Assembly: GCF_964275005.1 (NCBI RefSeq) | Contig: NC_092702.1 | Coordinates: 8,728,330-8,792,329, forward strand | Reading direction: 5' to 3' | Length of the DNA stretch: 64,000 nucleotides | From: Diadema setosum | Lineage: Eukaryota; Echinodermata; Echinoidea; Diadematoida; Diadematidae | Part shown: positions 14,527 to 63,383 of the stretch, one piece after another | Layout: each line of letters begins with the position of its first letter | Numbering within the stretch: position 1 is the stretch's first letter | The notes under the pieces: generated by a model | Databases searched by the model: none | Told to the model about the DNA's origin: nothing | Seen by the model: the letters and a program-made list of their open reading frames with translations, nothing else | Translations under genes and position numbers: made by a program

Positions 14527-14542
14527 TTTATTAGCTTTTATT
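14527..14542 (-). promoter_or_regulatory. Candidate poly(A) signals of the RNF139-like gene
   Basis: On the minus strand AATAAA occurs at 14542-14537, overlapping the stop codon, and again at 14532-14527. If used they give an unusually short 3' UTR. A longer 3' UTR running towards lower coordinates is equally possible. Confidence 0.4.
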
Positions 14543-16309
14543 CTTCTTGGATTCCAGGTCTTCCCTGTTCCTCATTTTGCCCTTCTTCACTATGCTCTTC
14601 ATTTGTTCTATCATCTGAGTCACTGCCAAACAAAATCTCTTTGTGACAAAGTGGGCATGAGTCTTGCATGTAGAGCCACTTTCGCAGACAAAGCGCATGA
14701 AACAAGTGGCCACAGGGAGTAATGCATGCACTGTTCAACTCCTGATAGCAGATGGCACATACGTCATTATGCTTCTCAAGCAGTGCTGGGGAGGCCTGCT
14801 CCAATAACTTGATCTTCTGGACTGCGAGCCGTCGATTGCGGAACTTTTTCCACCCATCTTTACCCAGCTGGAAGATGTTGAAGTACGCGTGGGTGCAGAT
14901 CATGATAGCGCGGATCACTCCCCGGGACTCAAAGATGAAGATCCAGGCACCATTGATAAACAGGAAAATCCCGGACACAAACTCCAGGACACTTCCTGTA
15001 GCCTTCACGTAGTACACATAATCATCTAACCCTTCCCAGAAAGTTTCTCGATGGGTGTCAATGACAAAAAGGATATACAAGATGAGACTAACAACAATCT
15101 TGATGATAAGCTCGAGGCAGAAAGCAGTCAGGGCAAGCATCCAGGTACCTATAGGATTGGCGTACCATAGCTGAACAATGAACCAGGCCGAGAAGAGGAT
15201 GAGAAAGCATGCCATGGTCAGGGCCCTGGCATGCTTCTTCCTGTTGATGACGTGCATGGTGGACAACTGCATCATGACGCCGTGGAGCATGGTGTGGACA
15301 AAGTGCAGGATGGCTGTACTCAGCAGGCACATGTTCCGTCCGAGTCGCACCACTCTGTTTTCTGGACTCATATCGGGCAGCCCAGTCTGCAAGGCCAGGA
15401 TGAAGAAAAGCACCGATGCCACTGTGCCAATGTTCTCCCCGCCTTCCCTCTCCACTCCCAGGAACAACCGTGCCAACTGTCCCACCACATTTGCTGCAGG
15501 CGATATGGTTGCACTTAACCCCATAACTGCAAGAAATGTGCTGCAACTTTCGACGGCTATCTCATACACAGCCAATGACAAAAACTTTCTGAATGATTGC
15601 TCAGTGTCACCATCATGTGCATAGGTGTATGCGAATACCAATCTACTTACCTGTATACCTAATCTTGTCAACCAAAACAACCTGAGAACCGTAGGAATTT
15701 TCAGTCGTACCCACTGATTTTCCACCATAACGGGAAACCCAAATCTCTTAAAAATGTTCAGATATGTCCTTGCAATGATTCTTAGGTTGATCAAGTAGTG
15801 ATACACGAAGGACATAACTCTCCCCAGTATGTTGAGCATTAAAATTGGTATAATGGGGTAGAGAAAATAGCATGTTTTGACAGCATCACTCATCATTCTT
15901 GCAGGTAGCACAGTGACAGCTGATAGAAACAGACGAAGGAATACAGGTGACACAAGGCACATCCAAACAGAAAAGATGGGGGCGTCAGTGTTGCTCCATT
16001 GTGAGAGATTGAAGAGGGCTGGTGTCTTGGCAAACACAAAACTGTACATCATCTGAATGCAGATATAGAAGAGGAATTCATCGCTGCACACCACTGCAAG
16101 TGCCTTGAGCTGTCCCTCTGCACCAAAGCCTGTTGGCACCGCCGTGGAGTTGGACTGGGTGTCCGTCAGATTGGCCATGCCCAACCTCTGAAGGAAGATT
16201 GCGTTCCACCACTGGGATGTTCTGAGTGCTGCCATGGCAACCACAAGCCCGTAGCACAGGCACAAGGTGGAGGATGGCAGGAAGAAGAGTACTGCACATA
16301 GCAGCAAGA
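14538..16309 (-). CDS. RNF139: RNF139-like coding exon 2 (membrane domain and RING-H2)
   Basis: The large exon encodes residues 53-642. The open frame extends upstream to an ATG at 16352. A polypyrimidine tract followed by CTTCAG|TC places the acceptor after 16310, so the first 14 residues of that open frame are probably intronic. The exon ends in TAA directly followed by AATAAA-type hexamers. Confidence 0.9.
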
Positions 16310-19300
16310 CTGAAGATGCAAAAGAGACATAAAACAGTTTTAAACATTTCACACAATCTAATCAATATGTTAATCTTGAGTTAATTGTATCTTACTCAGC
16401 AATGAAGCAGAATACTGAAGCCACAACTAGCACTTTCTATAAACCGATGCGGTAAAAATTATGGAGTGACCTGATACATACCAGGTAATGAAAAACATGT
16501 TGTGCAGTCTTGACACATTTTGATGAAGCAAAAGTTGAGAAATATACTTGGATACAAAACTGCACTAGTGCCCAAACTCTCAGACCTAGAGCTGAGGATA
16601 CTTGTCGTAAGGAAAGCTACCATGGTATAGCTTTACGTCCCCTCAGTGCCGAAGGACAGGGTAATCTCGACTAAAGTGCTTGCCTGAGGGCACAACTGCT
16701 ACTATTAGTATGACTACCAGCCAGGTAAACATGGAACCAAAATTTAAAGACCGAGACTGTGGTCTTGTCCACTGCACTGAGCCACACTGCACCAGCTCCT
16801 CTCCTACTGTCCAAGAGCAGTAGTCCATCTGATAGGGTGGATGAAGTTACAAAGAGCATGTATTATAAAATGGGTTCAAGAATGTAGCCAATAGGAAGCG
16901 CTTAAATGAGTCACGTGTGCTTTGGTTACTCAGTCCCATTGCACTGCGTGTTAAATCCTATTGCCGATCGTCTGTGCACGCGGCGGCTCCTTTGAATTGC
17001 ATGCATACGCGCTGTCAATCCTGTAAACAACTTCTAGTTCGGACTGCCGGCCGGCCGGGCTTTCTTCCCTTGTGCATAACATGTGTGGCGTACGTATACA
17101 TACAGTGTACAGTAGACCTAGTGTTGTGGGACCGGACGCGTACACGGAGTCACTTTGAAGGGCAAATCCAACGATTTAGCAGGTTAATTCTCACGCCGTT
17201 TATAGAGTACGTTGTCTAGTAGGCCTATATGAGGAGTCTATATCAAGTCTTTAAGGTAAAGGGTGCATATTCTACGTAAAATAAGTAAGTTTTCATGCGG
17301 GAACTTAAGTGTCCGGAAACCCAACCCCCCATCATACTTATACTGTATGTGTGGGATTTCCGAGTGCGACGTGCGTAAATGTTTGGGACGAACATCTTCG
17401 GACGTCTTGACCCACAAAGGTACGTGAAAAATGCTGAAAAATGCTATTAGTTTTCGAATTTTCGACCCATTTTATAAAACAAATGATGCACAGGATTATT
17501 TCGTGGCGTTAGTGGAGTCTTCACTAACGCACTCTATCCTGTGCATTATTTGTATAATATAGAATGGGTAGCAAAAATCATGCAATCTCATTGGTCGAGA
17601 GCTATGTGTTGATTTTTACTAGCCGCATGCCGAGTCACAGTGGTAAACATGCTATCGTGCACTTGTAGTGAGAGTACACGCAATGAGCATGCATTTGCAC
17701 ACTCAGTGCATCCAGTAGGCCTAATTACTGGATGCATTATTTTGGGGGGCTTTTGTCTATGTCAAGCCAAAAGGAATTGCATCCAGTAAATTTGCCAGCA
17801 GGTAGCATGATCGAAAAATGTTCCCATTAGATTTGATAACACAGATGATACATGTCTTTTCGTGTGTCAGTTGGAATAGTGTGCATGCGGTAACTGGAAT
17901 TTAGCCTAAACCCGCTCGGCTTCACCTTGTGGGTTAGCATTCCATAGTTGCCTCATGCACACAATTCCAAATGACGCATTCAGACCTGTGCGTCATTTGG
18001 ATAATACCTGCAAGACGGCCTTGACACAAAGCAATGGGTAATTTTTAATGGAATTGGAAATATTAAAACTTGAGCAAGGACATTTATGGTCGTAAAAGAA
18101 GTCAATAGTCACTGGACATACAGTATTATAGTCTCAGGCATGATATACGATGCAATTAACTTGCCAAAAGCTTTTGACCTCGCTGCCTAATTTGCATAAA
18201 GTAAACAGCATGTTAACGCAAAAACGGGGGGGGGGGGGGGGGGGAAGTGTTCTAGGACTATCGCAATATCTCGCCTTAGAAGCCATCAAATGATAAAATC
18301 TACACAGCAAATTGAAGGAGAAACTATTCCAAACCTGGCAACATTAGTTATTTTGGGTTTTCTTGAGGATAAACCTGAAAATAACGTCGAAACTTAGCCT
18401 CCAAAAAAAAGAAAATTTGGTCTCTCAGAAAATGTTTCACATTTTTCTTTATTGCCCCAAAATTAAACTTCAGTACATGACTTGTGGTAGTATGTCCATC
18501 CTGTGTTCCAAATATCTTTTCTGTAATATTTGTCGCACGGTTATGTCGGGAAAAAACCAAGACCACTGTCATTTGTGACCCACGTAAAATCCATAGCGCA
18601 AGTGTTACACAGCCCAATGTATTGGTTTTCATGCTGCATGAAACTGATGAAGCACATTGCAGGGTTCGTCTTTCACCCACTCACCACCCTGCGGACCGAA
18701 ACCAAACCCTGTCGACGTGCGCCGAACCTGACACTGCTGATTGGCTCAGCATGCGCTGACCAGTAAAAGAATGCATGCGCAGGAGGATGATCTAGGTGTG
18801 CATGTCCAGTATTTTCTCTAAAATTTGGTTGTCTATTTCCTCTGATTTTAACCTAACTACCGGTATTAATTGCGAAAACACAAAACTTCACAGGTAGGGA
18901 GTTTGGGGATACAGACGCGCAATTCGTTAATCAAGTAGAAATCTCTATGCATATTCATGCTGCAGCAGAGTTGTGTCGGGAAATAATCGTAACCCGGCCT
19001 TTCCCACGATCGACTCAAACAGAAAAATACAAATATCTCGAAAGATACATCAGGATTTTCGCCCAAAATTCATATGAAGTCTACCCATATTAGATATATT
19101 TTTATATGAAGTTTCAAGGGATTTAGTGGTCAAATAAGGGAGATATGAAAAGGGGAACTTTCGAGATTTTTTGTCCTTCACTTTGCACAGCACTTTGCAC
19201 AGCACTTCGATGACCGCTACGTATTCAAAAGCTTTCGCCTCTTATCACAGAGAAATTGCACCGAATCGCCTGACATGAGTCTGTGAAGATCAGAGGGGCA

Positions 19301-57592: not shown

Positions 57593-59825
57593 GTAGGCAT
57601 TGTGCCTTGCCCTTGTGCAATTGTGGTAAAACATGACTAGAATAGAGTAGAGTAATAGGGACTAATAATGTGGACATCAGGAGGGTGTTTCACGAAAAAT
57701 TAAAGTTGAAGATCGACTTATATTCTTTGTGAAACACCCCTAGAGATCTTTCTTGTGACGACAGCCTGTACAATAAGGTGAAATTTGTTGAGAAATTTCC
57801 ATTAAATCCTAATAACCAACACTAAAATATAGTATTTCATAAGGCAATTCCTTTTTATTTTTTGATGCTCTGAGATGCTCGATGACGGAGCTTTTTCTTG
57901 TGATGACAGCCTGTACGGTAAGGTTAAATTTGTTAAGAAATTTTCATTAGGCCTAAATGCTAATAACCAACAATAAATAAAAAGTATGGAAACCGAACGA
58001 GTACGAACGAAAACGATTCGACATAGACATTTGTTTCATTTTTCTTGCAGAAATGATTCCTCTGCTCATGAAAATAACACCAAGGATAGAAAACACATGT
58101 ACCTATATGAAATACTATATTTAATTGTTGGTTATTAGCATTTAATGGAAATTTCTCAACAAATTTCACCTCACCATACAGGCTGTCGCATGTCGTCACA
58201 AGAAAAAGCTCCGTCACCAAGATTCTCAGAGCAGGGAAGATACCGTTAAATATTGCTTTGCAGCATCAGAAAATAAAATGGAATGGCCTTAAAAATGAAT
58301 AAAACCTTTTTCCATACATTTTTATGACAAAAATGTCTTTCATTCTGTACAAATCTGGCACAAATAAAGTTGGGTCGAGTTGTCCAATTGCAAACCCGAC
58401 CCTGGACAATTCGACCCGTCCAGGGGTAGGGACGAGTTGTCCAGGGTCGTGTTATCCCGCGGTCGAGTTGTCCAACCCCCTCAAATTTTGGATTGCATGA
58501 TTATGGTTGAATCATGGGCAGCTTGCTTTAAAACATCCCATGTAGAGCTGCGTAGTCTAGACAGAAAAAAAAAAAAAGTCTGTCTGGAGGAGTCTTTTAA
58601 CCTGTTGAGGACGAGTCCCGAGTATACTCAAAAAGAAAAAATACATTGTAAGTTTTCTGACAAAAATGTGTCATATGAAAATCAGCTCTGAGAGACACAA
58701 ATAAGTGAAAATAATGGGTGAATTTATCTAATGATCTTTCAAATATCAGTTTTGCTACATGGTATACATTTTGAGGTGATTGGAAAACTGTTCTTAATGA
58801 AATTCACATTGTAATATAGTTACTGCCAAGAATATGAAATTTTCATTTGGTACAATTACACATTGTTTATCACATACAAGTAGACTGTATGTTCAGTCTG
58901 ACTGGAGATTTGGATGTTAGTTGGTAGTGATTACGGAATGTCAGCAGCACAGGGTATGAGAGAGAGCGCGAGAGCGCTTGAATGCAGACTCACCCGTCAC
59001 TGTGAAAAGGCCAGTAGAGAAATATTAATGACTGACACTGGGTAATTGCAACTACCAGTATTAATCTTGCTAAGTGGGCATTGCCAGCTTTTTTGACAAA
59101 GTGCTCCACATGTTTTGGTGATGTCGGCATAATCGTGATATAGTCCCCACCTCGGGTATAACGTCACCGGTGGGGACTAATAGAATCCCAACAGCTACCT
59201 TTGCACACAACTGTACATGTACATATCTCCCTGTGTTGCGCTTGCCTGCTCTCGTCTTGATTGGTCACCTCAACGCGCACGGGAGTTCTGTCTTCACCAA
59301 AGACGCTTGGTCTTCACACTCTGTTTTATCTCCGTGTATCTCCGTCTATTATGGTCGTGATATAGTCCCCACTCTATGGAAACTGTGTGCGAATTACACG
59401 GTGATGGGGACGATTTCACGACCATAGAGTAGCTCCTCCCTCTGTTATGCTCGTGATATAGTCCCCACACAACGATAAACTGTGCGTGTTTCGAATGGAG
59501 ATGGGGATTATTCCAACAGTATTATACTCGTGATATAGTCCCCCCTCCACAGGGAACCCGTTGCGTTATATATGGCAGTGGGGACAATTTCCACAAGGTT
59601 TATCTTGCTTGGATTTATCGGACAAATGATTGCTTTGTTGTTGTTGTTGTTGTTTTTGTGTGACTTTCTCGAAGTTCGAATTGCCTCTCGTCAATCATTT
59701 TTCTTGTCATTTTCCTTTTCTATGTTCTACCGATTTTTGTTTACATAATATTGTGACTTCAATTTTTTTTCTTCTTTACACGTTTAGAGCATTGTACCGG
59801 ATTCCTCTTTGAGTGGAAGAATGAG

Positions 59826-59860
<35 letters not shown>

Positions 59861-62800
59861 GGAGAAAAAAACAACAACCCCTGACTCAATTACCGCCAGA
59901 ATACTACACTGAACAATGTGATGAAAACAAGTAGCCTATAATATATTTTTAGCAGAACAAAAGGAAAGAAAATGTTTCAATTACCCTATAAACAATTAAG
60001 AATTCGGTTGGCCCGTCCGAGGCATGCAAGCTCAAGTTGGGTGCGTGCGTCGTTGTATTTATATTGATTTATGATGATGATAATGAGGATGATGATCATG
60101 CAATGTCATTGCTATTGCTGTAGTATTATGTCAGTTAAATGCATTTTCCGTATTTTCCCTTTACTTTGATGCAATTTTTATAGTTATTTTTTTATAGATG
60201 TTATTACATTTTTGAATAAACGGAAAACTACTTTGAATTTTAAGGCTTTGATGTGGGTCGATTCAGCTATTCTATTTCTTTATTCATTTCTTATTCATTT
60301 ATTATCTCATTTATTTAGTCATAATTTTCGCTGCAGTTTGTGCACAAAACAGATTTTATGTTATGCAGTATTGTGTTCTACGTGTGTTCCGTACCTCTAG
60401 TTAAAAAGAAAAAAAATGTAACAATCAAGGCATAATGTTGAGAGGCCTTTGTCCAAAGCAAACGATTTTCTTATTGATAACGGTCTCCCCCACTTGCATA
60501 CTTCACATATTATTTCACATGATTATGTATTTGTCATGTGAAATTTTGTTTGCGTTTTCATGATTTCACTAGAAAATTAATTAAAATGCAACTATGTAAT
60601 TAAATGCAAATTCCAAATCAAATGCAGGTGTATGAAATCACAACTCATTTGCCTTTACCGACAACTCTAGAAATAAAAAAAAATCGCTGTATTCAAACGC
60701 AAGAGCGTTGCAGAGATGTACGGTTTTCATACAAAACTATAGAAACTGCGTTTAAAACCATCCCTGAACATATACGGAAGTCCGTTATTGTTGAAAAGAC
60801 TTGCATTGTTTTTGTTTTATTTACTAATTACTACTATAAAAACTGCATTTAAAACCATCTCTGAACATCTATATATACGGAAGTGCGTTATTGTTGAAAA
60901 GACTTGCATTGTTTTTTTTTAATCAAAATAAATGCAAGTCCACCAAATCACACGAAACGCTGTACTAGTATTTCAACGGAAGAGCACAGCCGCCAGAGAA
61001 GACTTGCGATTTTGTACGAAACTATAGAAACTGCGTTTAAACGCATCTCTAAACATCAACGGAAGTGCGTTATTGTTGAAAAAACTCGTATTAATTGTTT
61101 TTTTATTTCGTACGCAAAATTAAAAATCAAGATCCATTCTGAAAATCAAATGCAAGTCCATCAAATCACACGGAACGTCAAGGCTTGCGTTTGGATTCAT
61201 GTACGAAACTATGTGTAGGAAACTCAGTTAAACTCAATTGCGTTCAAACGCAACTGTCCATATTATGCAAGTCCATCAAACCACACGCAACGCTGTATTT
61301 AGAACGCAAAAGCGTTGCAGAATCTCGGACTTGCAGTTTTTGTACAAAACTAATAAAAGTCTATGCGAAAGTGCGTTATACATTGTTGAAAAGACTTGCA
61401 TTATTTTTTTTTTTTAATTTCGTAATGGCTACAGGAACTTTCGCCGTGACCGAACTTAATCTGCACTAGCACGGGAAAGAAATCGCAACATTTACACATT
61501 TCAAACTACCGAAACGCATGCTGCTTCCTGAAATGTCAATAAAGATAGGTAGCAAGTTATTGTTACAGTTCGCTATGCCGAAGGTTTAAATCTCAGTCCA
61601 AAGTTATTAGTCCGACAATGGAAAGATGTTTGTTTTTACGAACTAGTAATCCGAAAGTTGTCGTTTTCAGATTAACAAACTTGACTTTTGTTTTTTTTTA
61701 TTTCAGACGGGCCTGCACCGTACAGCGCGGTTAAATGTTGCGAATCGGAGCGCGAGAACAATTCATTTTCCGAGTATGGCAATAGAAATTTATAAGCAAA
61801 ACAAATAATGCGACTTAAGGAAGGAAAATCACACATATTACTTCAACTCAGTCGGCACTGAAAAATTATCTCGACAGAATCATACGAATTCACACGCATA
61901 TCTTCGCAGCAACGCAATGAATATAAATCGCAATGGTACTTGCAATTTGGGGAATTGTGTTTGATTTTTCAAATCAAGTTTAAAACGTAGTGTCTAGAAA
62001 CGGGCACAGGTTTCCGATCTCGTTCTCTCCAAATCTCTGTAGAGATTTTGGAATTGTACGTTGTCGTCACTAATCCACGCGAGATTTATGCATGAACTAA
62101 AACATTATTGTTGCTAATGTCAGTATAGGCATGTTTTGGCGGCAAAAGGAAGGAGAAAGATTTTTCAAATCAAGTTTAAAACGTAAAGTGTCTAGAAACG
62201 GGCACAGGTTTCCGATCCCGTTCTCTCAAAATCTCTCTAGAGATTTTGGAATTGTACGTTGTCGTCACTAATCCACGCGAGATTTATGCATGAACTAAAA
62301 CATTATTGTTGCTAATGTCGGAGAGAGATTTGACTGAGTAGCGATCCGCATTAGGCATCGTGGAAATTGTCCCCACTGACATACATAACGCAGCCGGTTC
62401 GCCGTGGAGGGGGGACCATATCACGAGTATATATACTGTTGGAATAATCCCCACCTCCATTCAAAACACGCACAGTTCATCGTTGTGTGGGGACTATATC
62501 ACGAGCATAACAGAGGGGGAGTGGCTACTCTATGGTCGTGAAATTGTCCCCACCACGTGTAATTCGCACGCAGTTTCCCATAGAGTGGGGACTATATCAC
62601 GACCATATAATAGAGGGAGATACACGGAGATACACAGTACTGTATGAAGAGTGTGTGTGTCACTTTAGTGTGTGTTGTCTCACGACTATTGACCAATCAT
62701 GACGTCAGTTGCGTCAAAATCCGCAAGACTGGTACAGCTGTACACTACGCAATACGTGCTACACTCTCAACTAGGTATGTAGGTACTAGGTGGGATTGTA

Positions 62801-63383
62801 ATAGTCCCCAATGGAGAGGTGGGGACTATATCACGATTATGCCGGTGATGTCAATGGCTTCAACCATTACATGTCATGACCAAAGTGCTTGATAGAGATC
62901 ATACTATGCAGTACAGGCTGTCAGCAGTTTTATTTTTATTTTTTCAGTAATCATCGTCAAATTAAGTGCCCCATTTATGCTGCTTACTCATGTTGTTCAA
63001 GCAGTCTTATTGGTTGAATTTGTCATTTTCCATATGCCGCCCAATCCAGTGTTGGCAATGAGAAATACTGCATACAAGTAATTCAATTTAATGCTTGATT
63101 TTGTTCCTTGGCACAAAGTGCAAAAGCTTTGTACTTTGATAGATTAACCCTAACACCTCCCACTCCAATCATGGTAGAGAGTGATTTAAAGTATGATCCT
63201 ATGATTTATTTCTGCAGTGCCCAGAAAGCCGGACCCCCCTGTCGTGGGAAAGGTGACACATCATAGCATCGAGCTGTACTGGGAAAAGGCATCCAAGCAG
63301 GATACGGTTGCCAAGGGAGATGGGAGGCTACGCTACATCATCCAGGAGTCAGACCTCACCCAGGGATGGGGCAATGTCTACAC
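57586..63383 (+). CDS. FANK1: FANK1-like fibronectin type III and ankyrin protein, N-terminal part (gene continues past the window)
   Basis: Two coding exons are visible, 57586-57592 and 63218-63383. They join as ATGTCAG|TG to give MSVPRKPDPPVVGKVTHHS and onward. PPVVGKVTHHSIELYW is nearly identical to the FANK1 N-terminus, where a fibronectin type III domain precedes ankyrin repeats. FANK1 is known from mammals as a testis-enriched protein linked to sperm development and JNK/AP-1 signalling; the function in this organism is inferred. The visible protein is 57 residues and ends within the FN3 domain (GWGNVYT). The next exon must start with one base completing the codon. The ankyrin repeats lie outside the window. 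Confidence 0.88.
57683..58280. repeat. Fold-back repeats in FANK1 intron 1
   Basis: A hairpin GGGTGTTTCAC/GTGAAACACCC lies at 57683-57739. A unit containing GACAGCCTGTAC and AATAACCAACA is directly repeated (about 57750-57840 and 57893-57975) and then inverted at 58105-58215 (TTGGTTATTAGCATTTAATG, ATACAGGCTGTCG). Confidence 0.65.
58281..59116. other. FANK1 intron 1, between repeats
   Basis: 58373-58485 repeats the words GTCGAGTTGTCCA and CCTGGACAATTCGACCC in both orientations. The rest is unremarkable AT-rich DNA. Confidence 0.4.
59820..59862. repeat. (GA)n microsatellite
   Basis: GAGAGA tract inside the MULE-like element, just inside the left TIR. Confidence 0.9.
60600..61420. repeat. Diverged internal repeats of the MULE-like element
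   Basis: AAGTGCGTTATTGTTGAAAA-type words recur at about 60779, 60882, 61063 and 61368. GCAAGTCCATCAAATCACAC-type words recur at about 60933, 61151 and 61265. Units are 100-200 bp and strongly diverged. Confidence 0.6.
61963..62319. repeat. Direct duplication of about 160 bp inside the MULE-like element
   Basis: Units 61963-62121 and 62159-62319 both start GATTTTTCAAATCAAGTTTA and end GCTAATGTC, with few differences. A 37-base spacer separates them. Confidence 0.85.
62853..63217. other. 3' part of FANK1 intron 1
   Basis: AT-rich. It ends in a pyrimidine-containing acceptor TTATTTCTGCAG. No other feature seen. Confidence 0.5.
63218..63383 (+). CDS. FANK1: FANK1 coding exon 2 (fibronectin type III domain)
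   Basis: Encodes PRKPDPPVVGKVTHHSIELY followed by W and the rest of the first FN3 strands to NVYT. The acceptor is TTTCTGCAG and the donor TACAC|GTAAGA. The conserved block VGKVTHHSIELYW makes the assignment firm. Confidence 0.93.

What the first reader, a model, noticed from the sequence alone, without database searches (positions are those of the whole stretch)
59117..62852. Non-autonomous MULE-like element whose long TIRs are chains of hairpin modules
A perfect 9-bp duplication GGTGATGTC flanks a 3718-bp element with inverted ends of about 480 bp. Within each TIR the 16-mer GTGATATAGTCCCCAC recurs (59135, 59357, 59453, 59530 on the left; inverted at 62487, 62585, 62819 on the right). It is usually followed about 45 bases later by an inverted partner GTGGGGAC..TTTCAC. 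Hierarchical palindromes inside a TIR are unusual for Mutator-type elements and may be tandem transposase-binding sites or an amplification by-product. The superfamily call is inference from TSD length and TIR length.
Basis: partly seen in the sequence, partly recalled or inferred. Interest (0 to 1): 0.8.

Follow-up and report, generated by a model that had tools for sequence, protein, structure and literature searches.

The report
Merlin transposon with paired-site ends
A non-coding sea-urchin jumping gene that was taken for a Mutator element turns out to belong to the Merlin group, and its long ends are strings of paired copies of its own end signal that differ in a coordinated way between families, as expected if the jumping enzyme reads them.

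Summary
In detail: a 3718-bp element (59126-62843) with a perfect 9-bp duplication and long ends built from inverted pairs of a ~17-bp site. The superfamily call is wrong. A 5.5-kb copy with the same ends (contig C3, 8-bp duplication) carries a DDE_Tnp_IS1595 (Merlin/IS1016) transposase domain, and a 9.8-kb relative on C8 with the same end architecture carries an uninterrupted Merlin frame. Duplications are mostly 8 bp, sometimes 9, and termini are 5'-GG: Merlin, not MULE. The host is most likely the sea urchin Diadema setosum. The modules look like paired binding sites for the family's own transposase. Pairs lie 47-48 bp apart in families A and B and once in D; sites are more conserved than spacers (82% vs 58%); one base is T in 75 of 75 sites scored in family A and G in 63 of 63 in family B. 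Two further Merlin families carry inverted copies of their own, different, end motif. Hairpin pairing as such is not maintained. Mini-elements without internal modules also moved, so the arrays are not strictly required. Such arrays are known in CACTA and Galileo; I found none described for Merlin. Binding is inferred, not shown.

The parts
59117..59125 (.). target-site duplication GGTGATGTC, left copy
59126..62843 (+). whole non-autonomous Merlin element (family A), 3718 bp
   Evidence: relatives with Merlin transposase
59126..59595 (+). left end region (modules 1-4)
62360..62843 (-). right end region (modules 4-1)
59126..59137 (+). outer terminal core GGC-N4-TCGTG, left; same position in families C and D and in the C8 right end
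62832..62843 (-). outer terminal core GGC-N4-TCGTG, right
59134..59150 (+). outward site O1, left (terminal)
59170..59186 (-). inward partner site I1, left
59356..59372 (+). outward site O2, left
59404..59420 (-). inward partner I2, left
59452..59468 (+). outward site O3, left
59501..59517 (-). inward partner I3, left
59529..59545 (+). outward site O4, left (1 mismatch in the 16-mer)
59578..59594 (-). inward partner I4, left
62360..62376 (+). inward partner I4, right
62438..62454 (+). inward partner I3, right
62487..62503 (-). outward site O3, right
62537..62553 (+). inward partner I2, right
62585..62601 (-). outward site O2, right
62795..62811 (+). inward partner I1, right
62819..62835 (-). 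outward site O1, right (terminal)
59596..62359 (.). interior without detectable transposase remnant; holds a 198-bp tandem repeat at 61963-62319 and a degenerate ~100-bp repeat at 60725-61103
62844..62852 (.). target-site duplication GGTGATGTC, right copy

Best explanation
The element is a non-autonomous member of the Merlin (IS1016/IS1595-like DDE) superfamily in a sea urchin, most likely Diadema setosum. It moves by cut and paste with a Merlin transposase supplied in trans, making 8- or 9-bp target duplications. Each end is an array of four modules. A module is an outward site (CGTGATATAGTCCCCAC) plus a weaker inward partner, 47-48 bp away in modules 2-4. The modules are most likely binding sites for the family's own transposase (a dimer or multimer bridging a pair), of which the terminal site is the essential one and the internal pairs raise or regulate end binding. 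Shown from sequence: membership, ends, duplications, array anatomy, higher conservation of sites, and the coordinated base difference between families. Inferred: that the bound protein is the transposase, the stoichiometry, and the enhancing role.
For: Merlin: the same 25-bp ends bound a 5498-bp copy on C3 (duplication GATGCAAC) that contains PF12762 DDE_Tnp_IS1595, E 1.6e-22, with D12, D76, E121 retained at columns that are D, D, E in 73/73, 76/76 and 75/75 of the residues present among 76 aligned homologs (of 94 found). A 9771-bp relative on C8, duplication GAGAAACA, holds an uninterrupted Merlin frame, 461 aa from the conserved start, and the same arrays. Duplications in 20 further copies: 15 exact 8 bp, 2 of 8 bp with one mismatch, 2 exact 9 bp, 1 none. 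Sites: window-versus-C8 identity is 155/188 in sites and 142/244 in spacers, Fisher p 7e-8, switch column left out. The switch base is T in 75 of 75 sites scored in 7 A copies and G in 63 of 63 in C8 plus 10 B mini-elements. Pair spacing is 47-48 bp in modules 2-4 of A and the two inner modules of each C8 end, and 48 in one D pair. Each of four families carries, at its ends, sites matching its own terminus (10, 8, 9 and 4 at up to 4 mismatches; shuffled expectation at most 0.05).
Against: No binding or transposition assay. Eight of nine mini-elements of 116-153 bp, which lack the internal modules, carry a duplication (two of them with one mismatch), so internal modules are not required. The only protein-coding A copy found lacks residues 23-151 of its nearest homolog, so an intact A transposase was not seen in this genome. 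The inward sites are weak. Sites were defined by motif, which favours site columns in the window-versus-C8 comparison; in that alignment 10 of 12 switch columns were ungapped and 9 of those 10 show the T/G difference, one being out of register. One A copy (C15, right module 3) has a 62-bp instead of a 48-bp pair, and C5 has lost modules on the left. Of 9 long copies inspected at both ends, 4 (C24, C5, C4, C3b) show no duplication or altered ends. Of 30 Merlin loci held with ~1.5 kb flanks, only the C3 copy shows A sites. Family C rests on one copy. Ends of two other Merlin loci (C9 and the C2 pseudogene) were not resolved.
Confidence: 0.72

Rival explanations
1. Mutator-like (MULE) or Foldback element.
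For: 9-bp duplication in this copy and long, internally repeated ends; Tm1, a MULE/Foldback family, has such ends and 9-bp duplications (PMC3169594, passages).
Against: Transposase between the same or homologous ends is PF12762, not MULE; duplications read are mostly 8 bp; 5'-GG termini. A genome search for PF10551 did not complete, so MULEs elsewhere in the genome were not examined.
Confidence: 0.02
2. The modules are a by-product: repeated local duplication, nested insertion or gene conversion between ends, without a binding function; the coordinated T/G difference comes from homogenisation.
For: Left and right inner blocks of the window element are 94% alike, so the ends may exchange sequence; internal modules are dispensable in mini-elements; family C modules are ~109-bp tandem copies.
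Against: Outward and inward classes stay distinct in A and B (O-O 16.3 and 14.5 of 17 against within-module O-I 12.1 and 10.0) while both carry the same switch base, which simple homogenisation would blur; 47-48 bp spacing is kept while spacers fall to 58%.
Confidence: 0.17
3. The arrays bind a host protein or act as promoter/silencing elements rather than as transposase sites.
For: CCAAT-like and CRE-like words lie in the mid-end region (sequence; names recalled).
Against: Sites track each family's own terminus, which the transposase must recognise.
Confidence: 0.09
4. The modules work as folded hairpins (single-stranded DNA or RNA).
For: Palindromic layout; family C modules are 83-85% self-complementary over ~104 bp where measured. 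The T/G switch on both arms would also keep that base pair.
Against: Within-module arm similarity equals between-module similarity in the window element (12.12 vs 12.05 of 17) and is not higher in C8 (10.0 vs 10.53). Not tested in C and D.
Confidence: 0.04

Closest known systems
Merlin superfamily (PMC8101967: abstract and outline, section 10 part 1 of 2, and passages seen)
   Same: DDE_Tnp_IS1595 domain, 8- or 9-bp duplications, terminal 5'-GG, long TIRs (24-462 bp reported), internal tandem repeats noted in several families
   Different: The parts seen do not describe inverted site pairs, fixed 47-48 bp spacing, or family-specific arrays; this end region (~470-480 bp, patchy) is at or just beyond the reported range
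CACTA/En-Spm elements, e.g. soybean Tgmt* (PMC2613891, passages)
   Same: Subterminal direct and inverted motifs able to form stem-loops (2 left, 12 right), read as sites for a TNPA-like DNA-binding protein and diverging between subfamilies
   Different: Unrelated transposase, 3-bp duplication, CACTA termini; the modules lie inside of a short 13-bp TIR
Galileo (P superfamily) (PMC3688188, abstract and discussion section)
   Same: Long repeated TIRs with several transposase THAP-domain binding sites, shown biochemically
   Different: P-type transposase; sites about 70, 570 and 710 bp from the end rather than close inverted pairs
Tm1 Mutator/Foldback (PMC3169594, passages)
   Same: Composite TIRs of repeated motifs; non-autonomous and MITE-like derivatives
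   Different: MULE transposase, 9-bp duplications, ~14-bp direct tandem repeats

Membership tests
Merlin | DDE_Tnp_IS1595 (PF12762) transposase between the same ends in a relative | tested here: met
   C3 copy, E 1.6e-22; C8 uninterrupted frame with homologous ends, aligned over the whole length of P0001
Merlin | conserved D, D, E catalytic residues | tested here: met
   D12, D76, E121 in the C3 frame
Merlin | 8- or 9-bp target duplication | tested here: met
   5 of 9 long copies (9, 8, 8, 8, 8; the other 4 none or altered ends) and 19 of 20 short copies (15 exact 8 bp, 2 exact 9 bp, 2 of 8 bp with one mismatch)
Merlin | terminal 5'-GG | tested here: met
   GGCATAATCG at both ends
Merlin | TIR 24-462 bp | tested here: inconclusive
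   Perfect 28 bp plus patchy similarity to ~470 bp
Merlin | this copy itself encodes a transposase | tested here: not met
   tblastn of 8 Merlin proteins finds nothing better than E 0.37: non-autonomous
Mutator-like (MULE) | MULE transposase (PF10551) in a relative with the same ends | tested here: not met
   The coding relative with the same ends and the C8 relative carry PF12762-type transposases; genome-wide PF10551 search unanswered
Mutator-like (MULE) | predominantly 9-bp duplication | tested here: not met
   9 bp in the window copy and 2 of 20 others; 8 bp in most
Foldback-type ends (architecture) | long, internally repeated inverted ends | tested here: met
   an architecture shared by several superfamilies, not a lineage

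The most novel reading that the evidence does not exclude
Merlin transposases recognise inverted site pairs with a fixed ~47-48 bp geometry. Each Merlin lineage keeps end arrays that evolve together with its transposase, so that a single T/G change spread over a dozen or more sites marks a switch of specificity. Mini-elements can change masters by acquiring another family's terminal site: mini-elements with a family B interior and family A ends were found with target duplications.
Probability: 0.45. Interest if true: 0.62.

Novelty: new variant of a known kind. Interest (0 to 1): 0.46.

Why it matters
Merlin is, as far as I recall, one of the less studied cut-and-paste superfamilies; in the tops of the listings of four paper searches I saw no paper mapping where its transposase binds. 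Two sister families in one genome whose arrays differ by one consistent base, with an uninterrupted family B frame and many short non-coding copies (308 A- or B-type termini), give a ready test of how transposase and sites evolve together and why long modular ends arise repeatedly in unrelated transposons.

Tried and rejected
MULE: rejected as above. Hairpin function: tested by within- versus between-module similarity in the window element and C8, not supported. Transposase as a chance capture in the C3 copy: made unlikely by the C8 relative and by Merlin frames inside differently bounded families C and D. hAT or P (also 8-bp duplications, recalled): rejected on the transposase. Merlin relatives in other loci: 30 loci held with ~1.5 kb flanks were scanned for A sites at up to 3 mismatches; only the C3 copy itself had them, and a loose motif scan of 29 of them (L028-L056) found nothing. 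The C2 pseudogene (nearest transposase, 80% over part) showed no recognisable ends in 9.8 kb. The C9 locus has a D-type left terminus but no matching right end within reach. A search of four Merlin loci by duplication plus terminus also gave chance hits; C was accepted because the GG-N5-TCGTGA scan, up to one mismatch, gave one left and one right candidate with an 8/8 duplication. D likewise gave one and one, with 7/8. D-like termini occur 48 times in the genome at up to 3 mismatches, 15 exact, control 0; the C terminus occurs once. laid one C8 piece in the wrong orientation; its C8 results were discarded and redone. The first C8 left-end search missed because too little upstream sequence was held; found. 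One search ended with a file error after the tblastn part; the rest was redone.

Full report
Observation. The sequence shows a 3718-bp element at 59126-62843 between perfect copies of GGTGATGTC. The terminal 28 bp are perfectly inverted (whose 29-bp arms include one base of each flank). Similarity between the ends is then patchy up to ~470 bp, with a 94% block at 201-470. The element holds 10 sites at up to 3 mismatches against a mean of 0.06 in 50 shuffles.

Host. The window is C18:8728330-8792329 of a 912.7-Mb assembly in 102 contigs. Its RNF139 frame (14541-16361, minus) is 100% identical over 97% to a Diadema setosum protein; the named Strongylocentrotus and Lytechinus proteins follow at 64-67%. 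I take the host to be Diadema setosum or a very close relative.

Family. A DNA search with the left end gave 35 matches. Long copies on C13 (CGAGAAGG), C15 (ATGAAATG, inside a GAAAT repeat) and C3 (GATGCAAC) have 8-bp duplications; the window copy has 9. C24, C5, C4 and C3b have altered ends or no duplication. Further fetched loci show one end or fragments only and were not counted. The C3 copy (5498 bp) holds a frame with PF12762 DDE_Tnp_IS1595, E 1.6e-22. Among its 94 homologs are proteins of Strongylocentrotus (59%, the best), several molluscs, Diadema antillarum and Lytechinus. Compared with the Strongylocentrotus protein, the C3 frame lacks residues 23-151, which include the CxxC region, but keeps the three catalytic acidic residues. 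Genome-wide there are 56 matches to this protein.

An uninterrupted relative. On C8 an open Merlin frame (461 aa from the conserved start, 477 from an upstream ATG) lies in a 9771-bp element with duplication GAGAAACA. Its left terminus is about six bases short. Its ends have the same anatomy: a terminal module (partner 35 bp in on the left, 24 on the right), then two modules 77-78 bp apart whose inverted partners lie 47-48 bp away. Over the DDE domain the C3 (A) and C8 (B) proteins are 69% identical. So a Merlin transposase sits between ends homologous to those of the window element.

Abundance and duplications. The A terminus has 308 matches in the genome at up to 3 mismatches, control 0. Among the listed places (the list is cut) are 26 exact A termini, and a second type (B), at 3 mismatches, that is the C8 right terminus or its partner end. 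I chose 20 of the listed places where both ends were visible (10 with A ends, 116-1030 bp; 10 with B ends, 408-431 bp) and read their flanks: 15 exact 8-bp duplications, 2 of 8 bp with one mismatch, 2 exact 9-bp, 1 none. This is the Merlin pattern of 8 or 9 bp with 5'-GG ends, as stated in PMC8101967 (passages).

What the modules are. Sites fall into two classes, outward (CGTGA...CCCCAC) and inward (often GTGGAA...CCCCAC). Between the window element and C8, site identity is 155/188 and spacer identity 142/244 with the switch column left out (Fisher p 7e-8). The caveats are that sites were chosen by motif and that the alignment left two of twelve switch columns uncounted at gaps and put one out of register; the other nine show T/G. 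The base before CCCC is T in 75 of 75 sites in seven A copies and G in 63 of 63 sites in C8 plus ten B mini-elements; these counts cover only sites that match the site expressions used there. Both classes differ together yet remain distinct. Arms of the same module are no more alike than arms of different modules (12.12 vs 12.05 of 17 in the window element; 10.0 vs 10.53 in C8). That is what paired protein sites predict and folded hairpins do not.

Generality. Two further Merlin loci were bounded. Family C (C2, 6153 bp, duplication GCTTATGT 8/8) and family D (C10, 5771 bp, duplication 7/8) share the outer core GGC-N4-TCGTG at the same position. C carries in its right end four ~109-bp tandem units, 83-85% self-complementary over ~104 bp where measured, with a motif also present at its left terminus. 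D carries an inverted pair 48 bp apart plus two further inverted sites (one at 5 mismatches) of its own terminal motif, all on the left. A cross-match of the four families' terminal sites against the four families' ends is nearly diagonal: own sites 10, 8, 9 and 4 at up to 4 mismatches; A and B match each other (9 and 4); the ends of C and D hold no A or B site at that setting, and the ends of A hold one D-like site. Interiors show 0, 0, 3 and 0 own sites at the same setting; the three in C lie beyond the 800 bp taken as ends. D-like termini occur 48 times (15 exact), control 0; the C terminus once. In contrast, 29 other Merlin loci held with ~1.5 kb flanks show no A sites; how far they lie from their own ends is mostly unknown.

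Mechanism proposed. The transposase binds the terminal site and, cooperatively, the internal inverted pairs; the outer core is where cleavage would be positioned. Non-coding copies such as the window element borrow the enzyme. Mini-elements of 116-153 bp without internal modules have moved (8 of 9 with a duplication), so the internal modules are probably enhancers of end binding rather than essential parts. In six of ten A-ended short copies a B-type remnant GGCCCCACC sits just inside the A terminus, and the interiors of the three that I aligned match the B mini-element: B elements seem to have acquired A ends. Which enzyme moved them is unknown.

Known and new. Long modular ends with several transposase sites are known in Galileo (PMC3688188) and, as subterminal repeats, in CACTA (PMC2613891); repeated ends are known in Tm1 (PMC3169594). 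Internal tandem repeats in Merlin are noted in PMC8101967. Of these papers I saw abstracts, single sections or passages, not whole texts. In the listings (20 of 82, 20 of 64, 3 of 3 and 12 of 17,812 papers shown) I found no description of inverted site arrays in Merlin, nor of binding sites of a Merlin transposase. The library lacks most subscription papers; the 2004 founding paper I know only through PMC8101967.

Limits. Everything is sequence inference from one assembly. Intact family A transposase was not found. The genome search for MULE transposase and the count of B termini did not complete.

Noticed in passing
L068-L076 (116-153 bp copies on C1, C2, C7, C9, C10, C14, C17) and L077 (1030 bp, C6): Short elements with family A ends; 6 of 10 keep an inner B-type GGCCCCACC, and the three aligned have an interior matching the family B mini-element: an apparent end swap between families.
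   Followed up: partly
G000 C2, C6, C10, C12, C16, C19, C20: A further terminus type GGCATTATCGTGAAATAAGTCCCC in 10 of the 48 D-like matches, possibly a fifth Merlin family or a bridge between A and D.
   Followed up: no
L024, L025, L026 (C15:200000-233000): An A-like terminus variant repeated three times about 13 kb apart, apparently a tandem segmental duplication; a nearby frame looks MULE-like to me from recall but had no Pfam match at E 0.001.
   Followed up: partly
C19:12594898-12594921 and C13:14203155-14203178: D-like termini within about 3 and 5 kb of further Merlin transposase matches, likely more copies of family D.
   Followed up: no
window 61963-62319: 198-bp unit repeated 1.8 times inside the element, 96% matches; internal tandem repeats are noted for Merlin in PMC8101967.
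   Followed up: no
window 59259-59267 and 62690-62707: CCAAT-like word GATTGGTCA in the mid part of both ends (inverted on the right), followed on the right by TGACGTCA; possible promoter words (names recalled).
   Followed up: no
window 14541-16361 (-): RNF139/TRC8 E3 ligase frame, 100% over 97% to Diadema setosum; used to place the host.
   Followed up: yes
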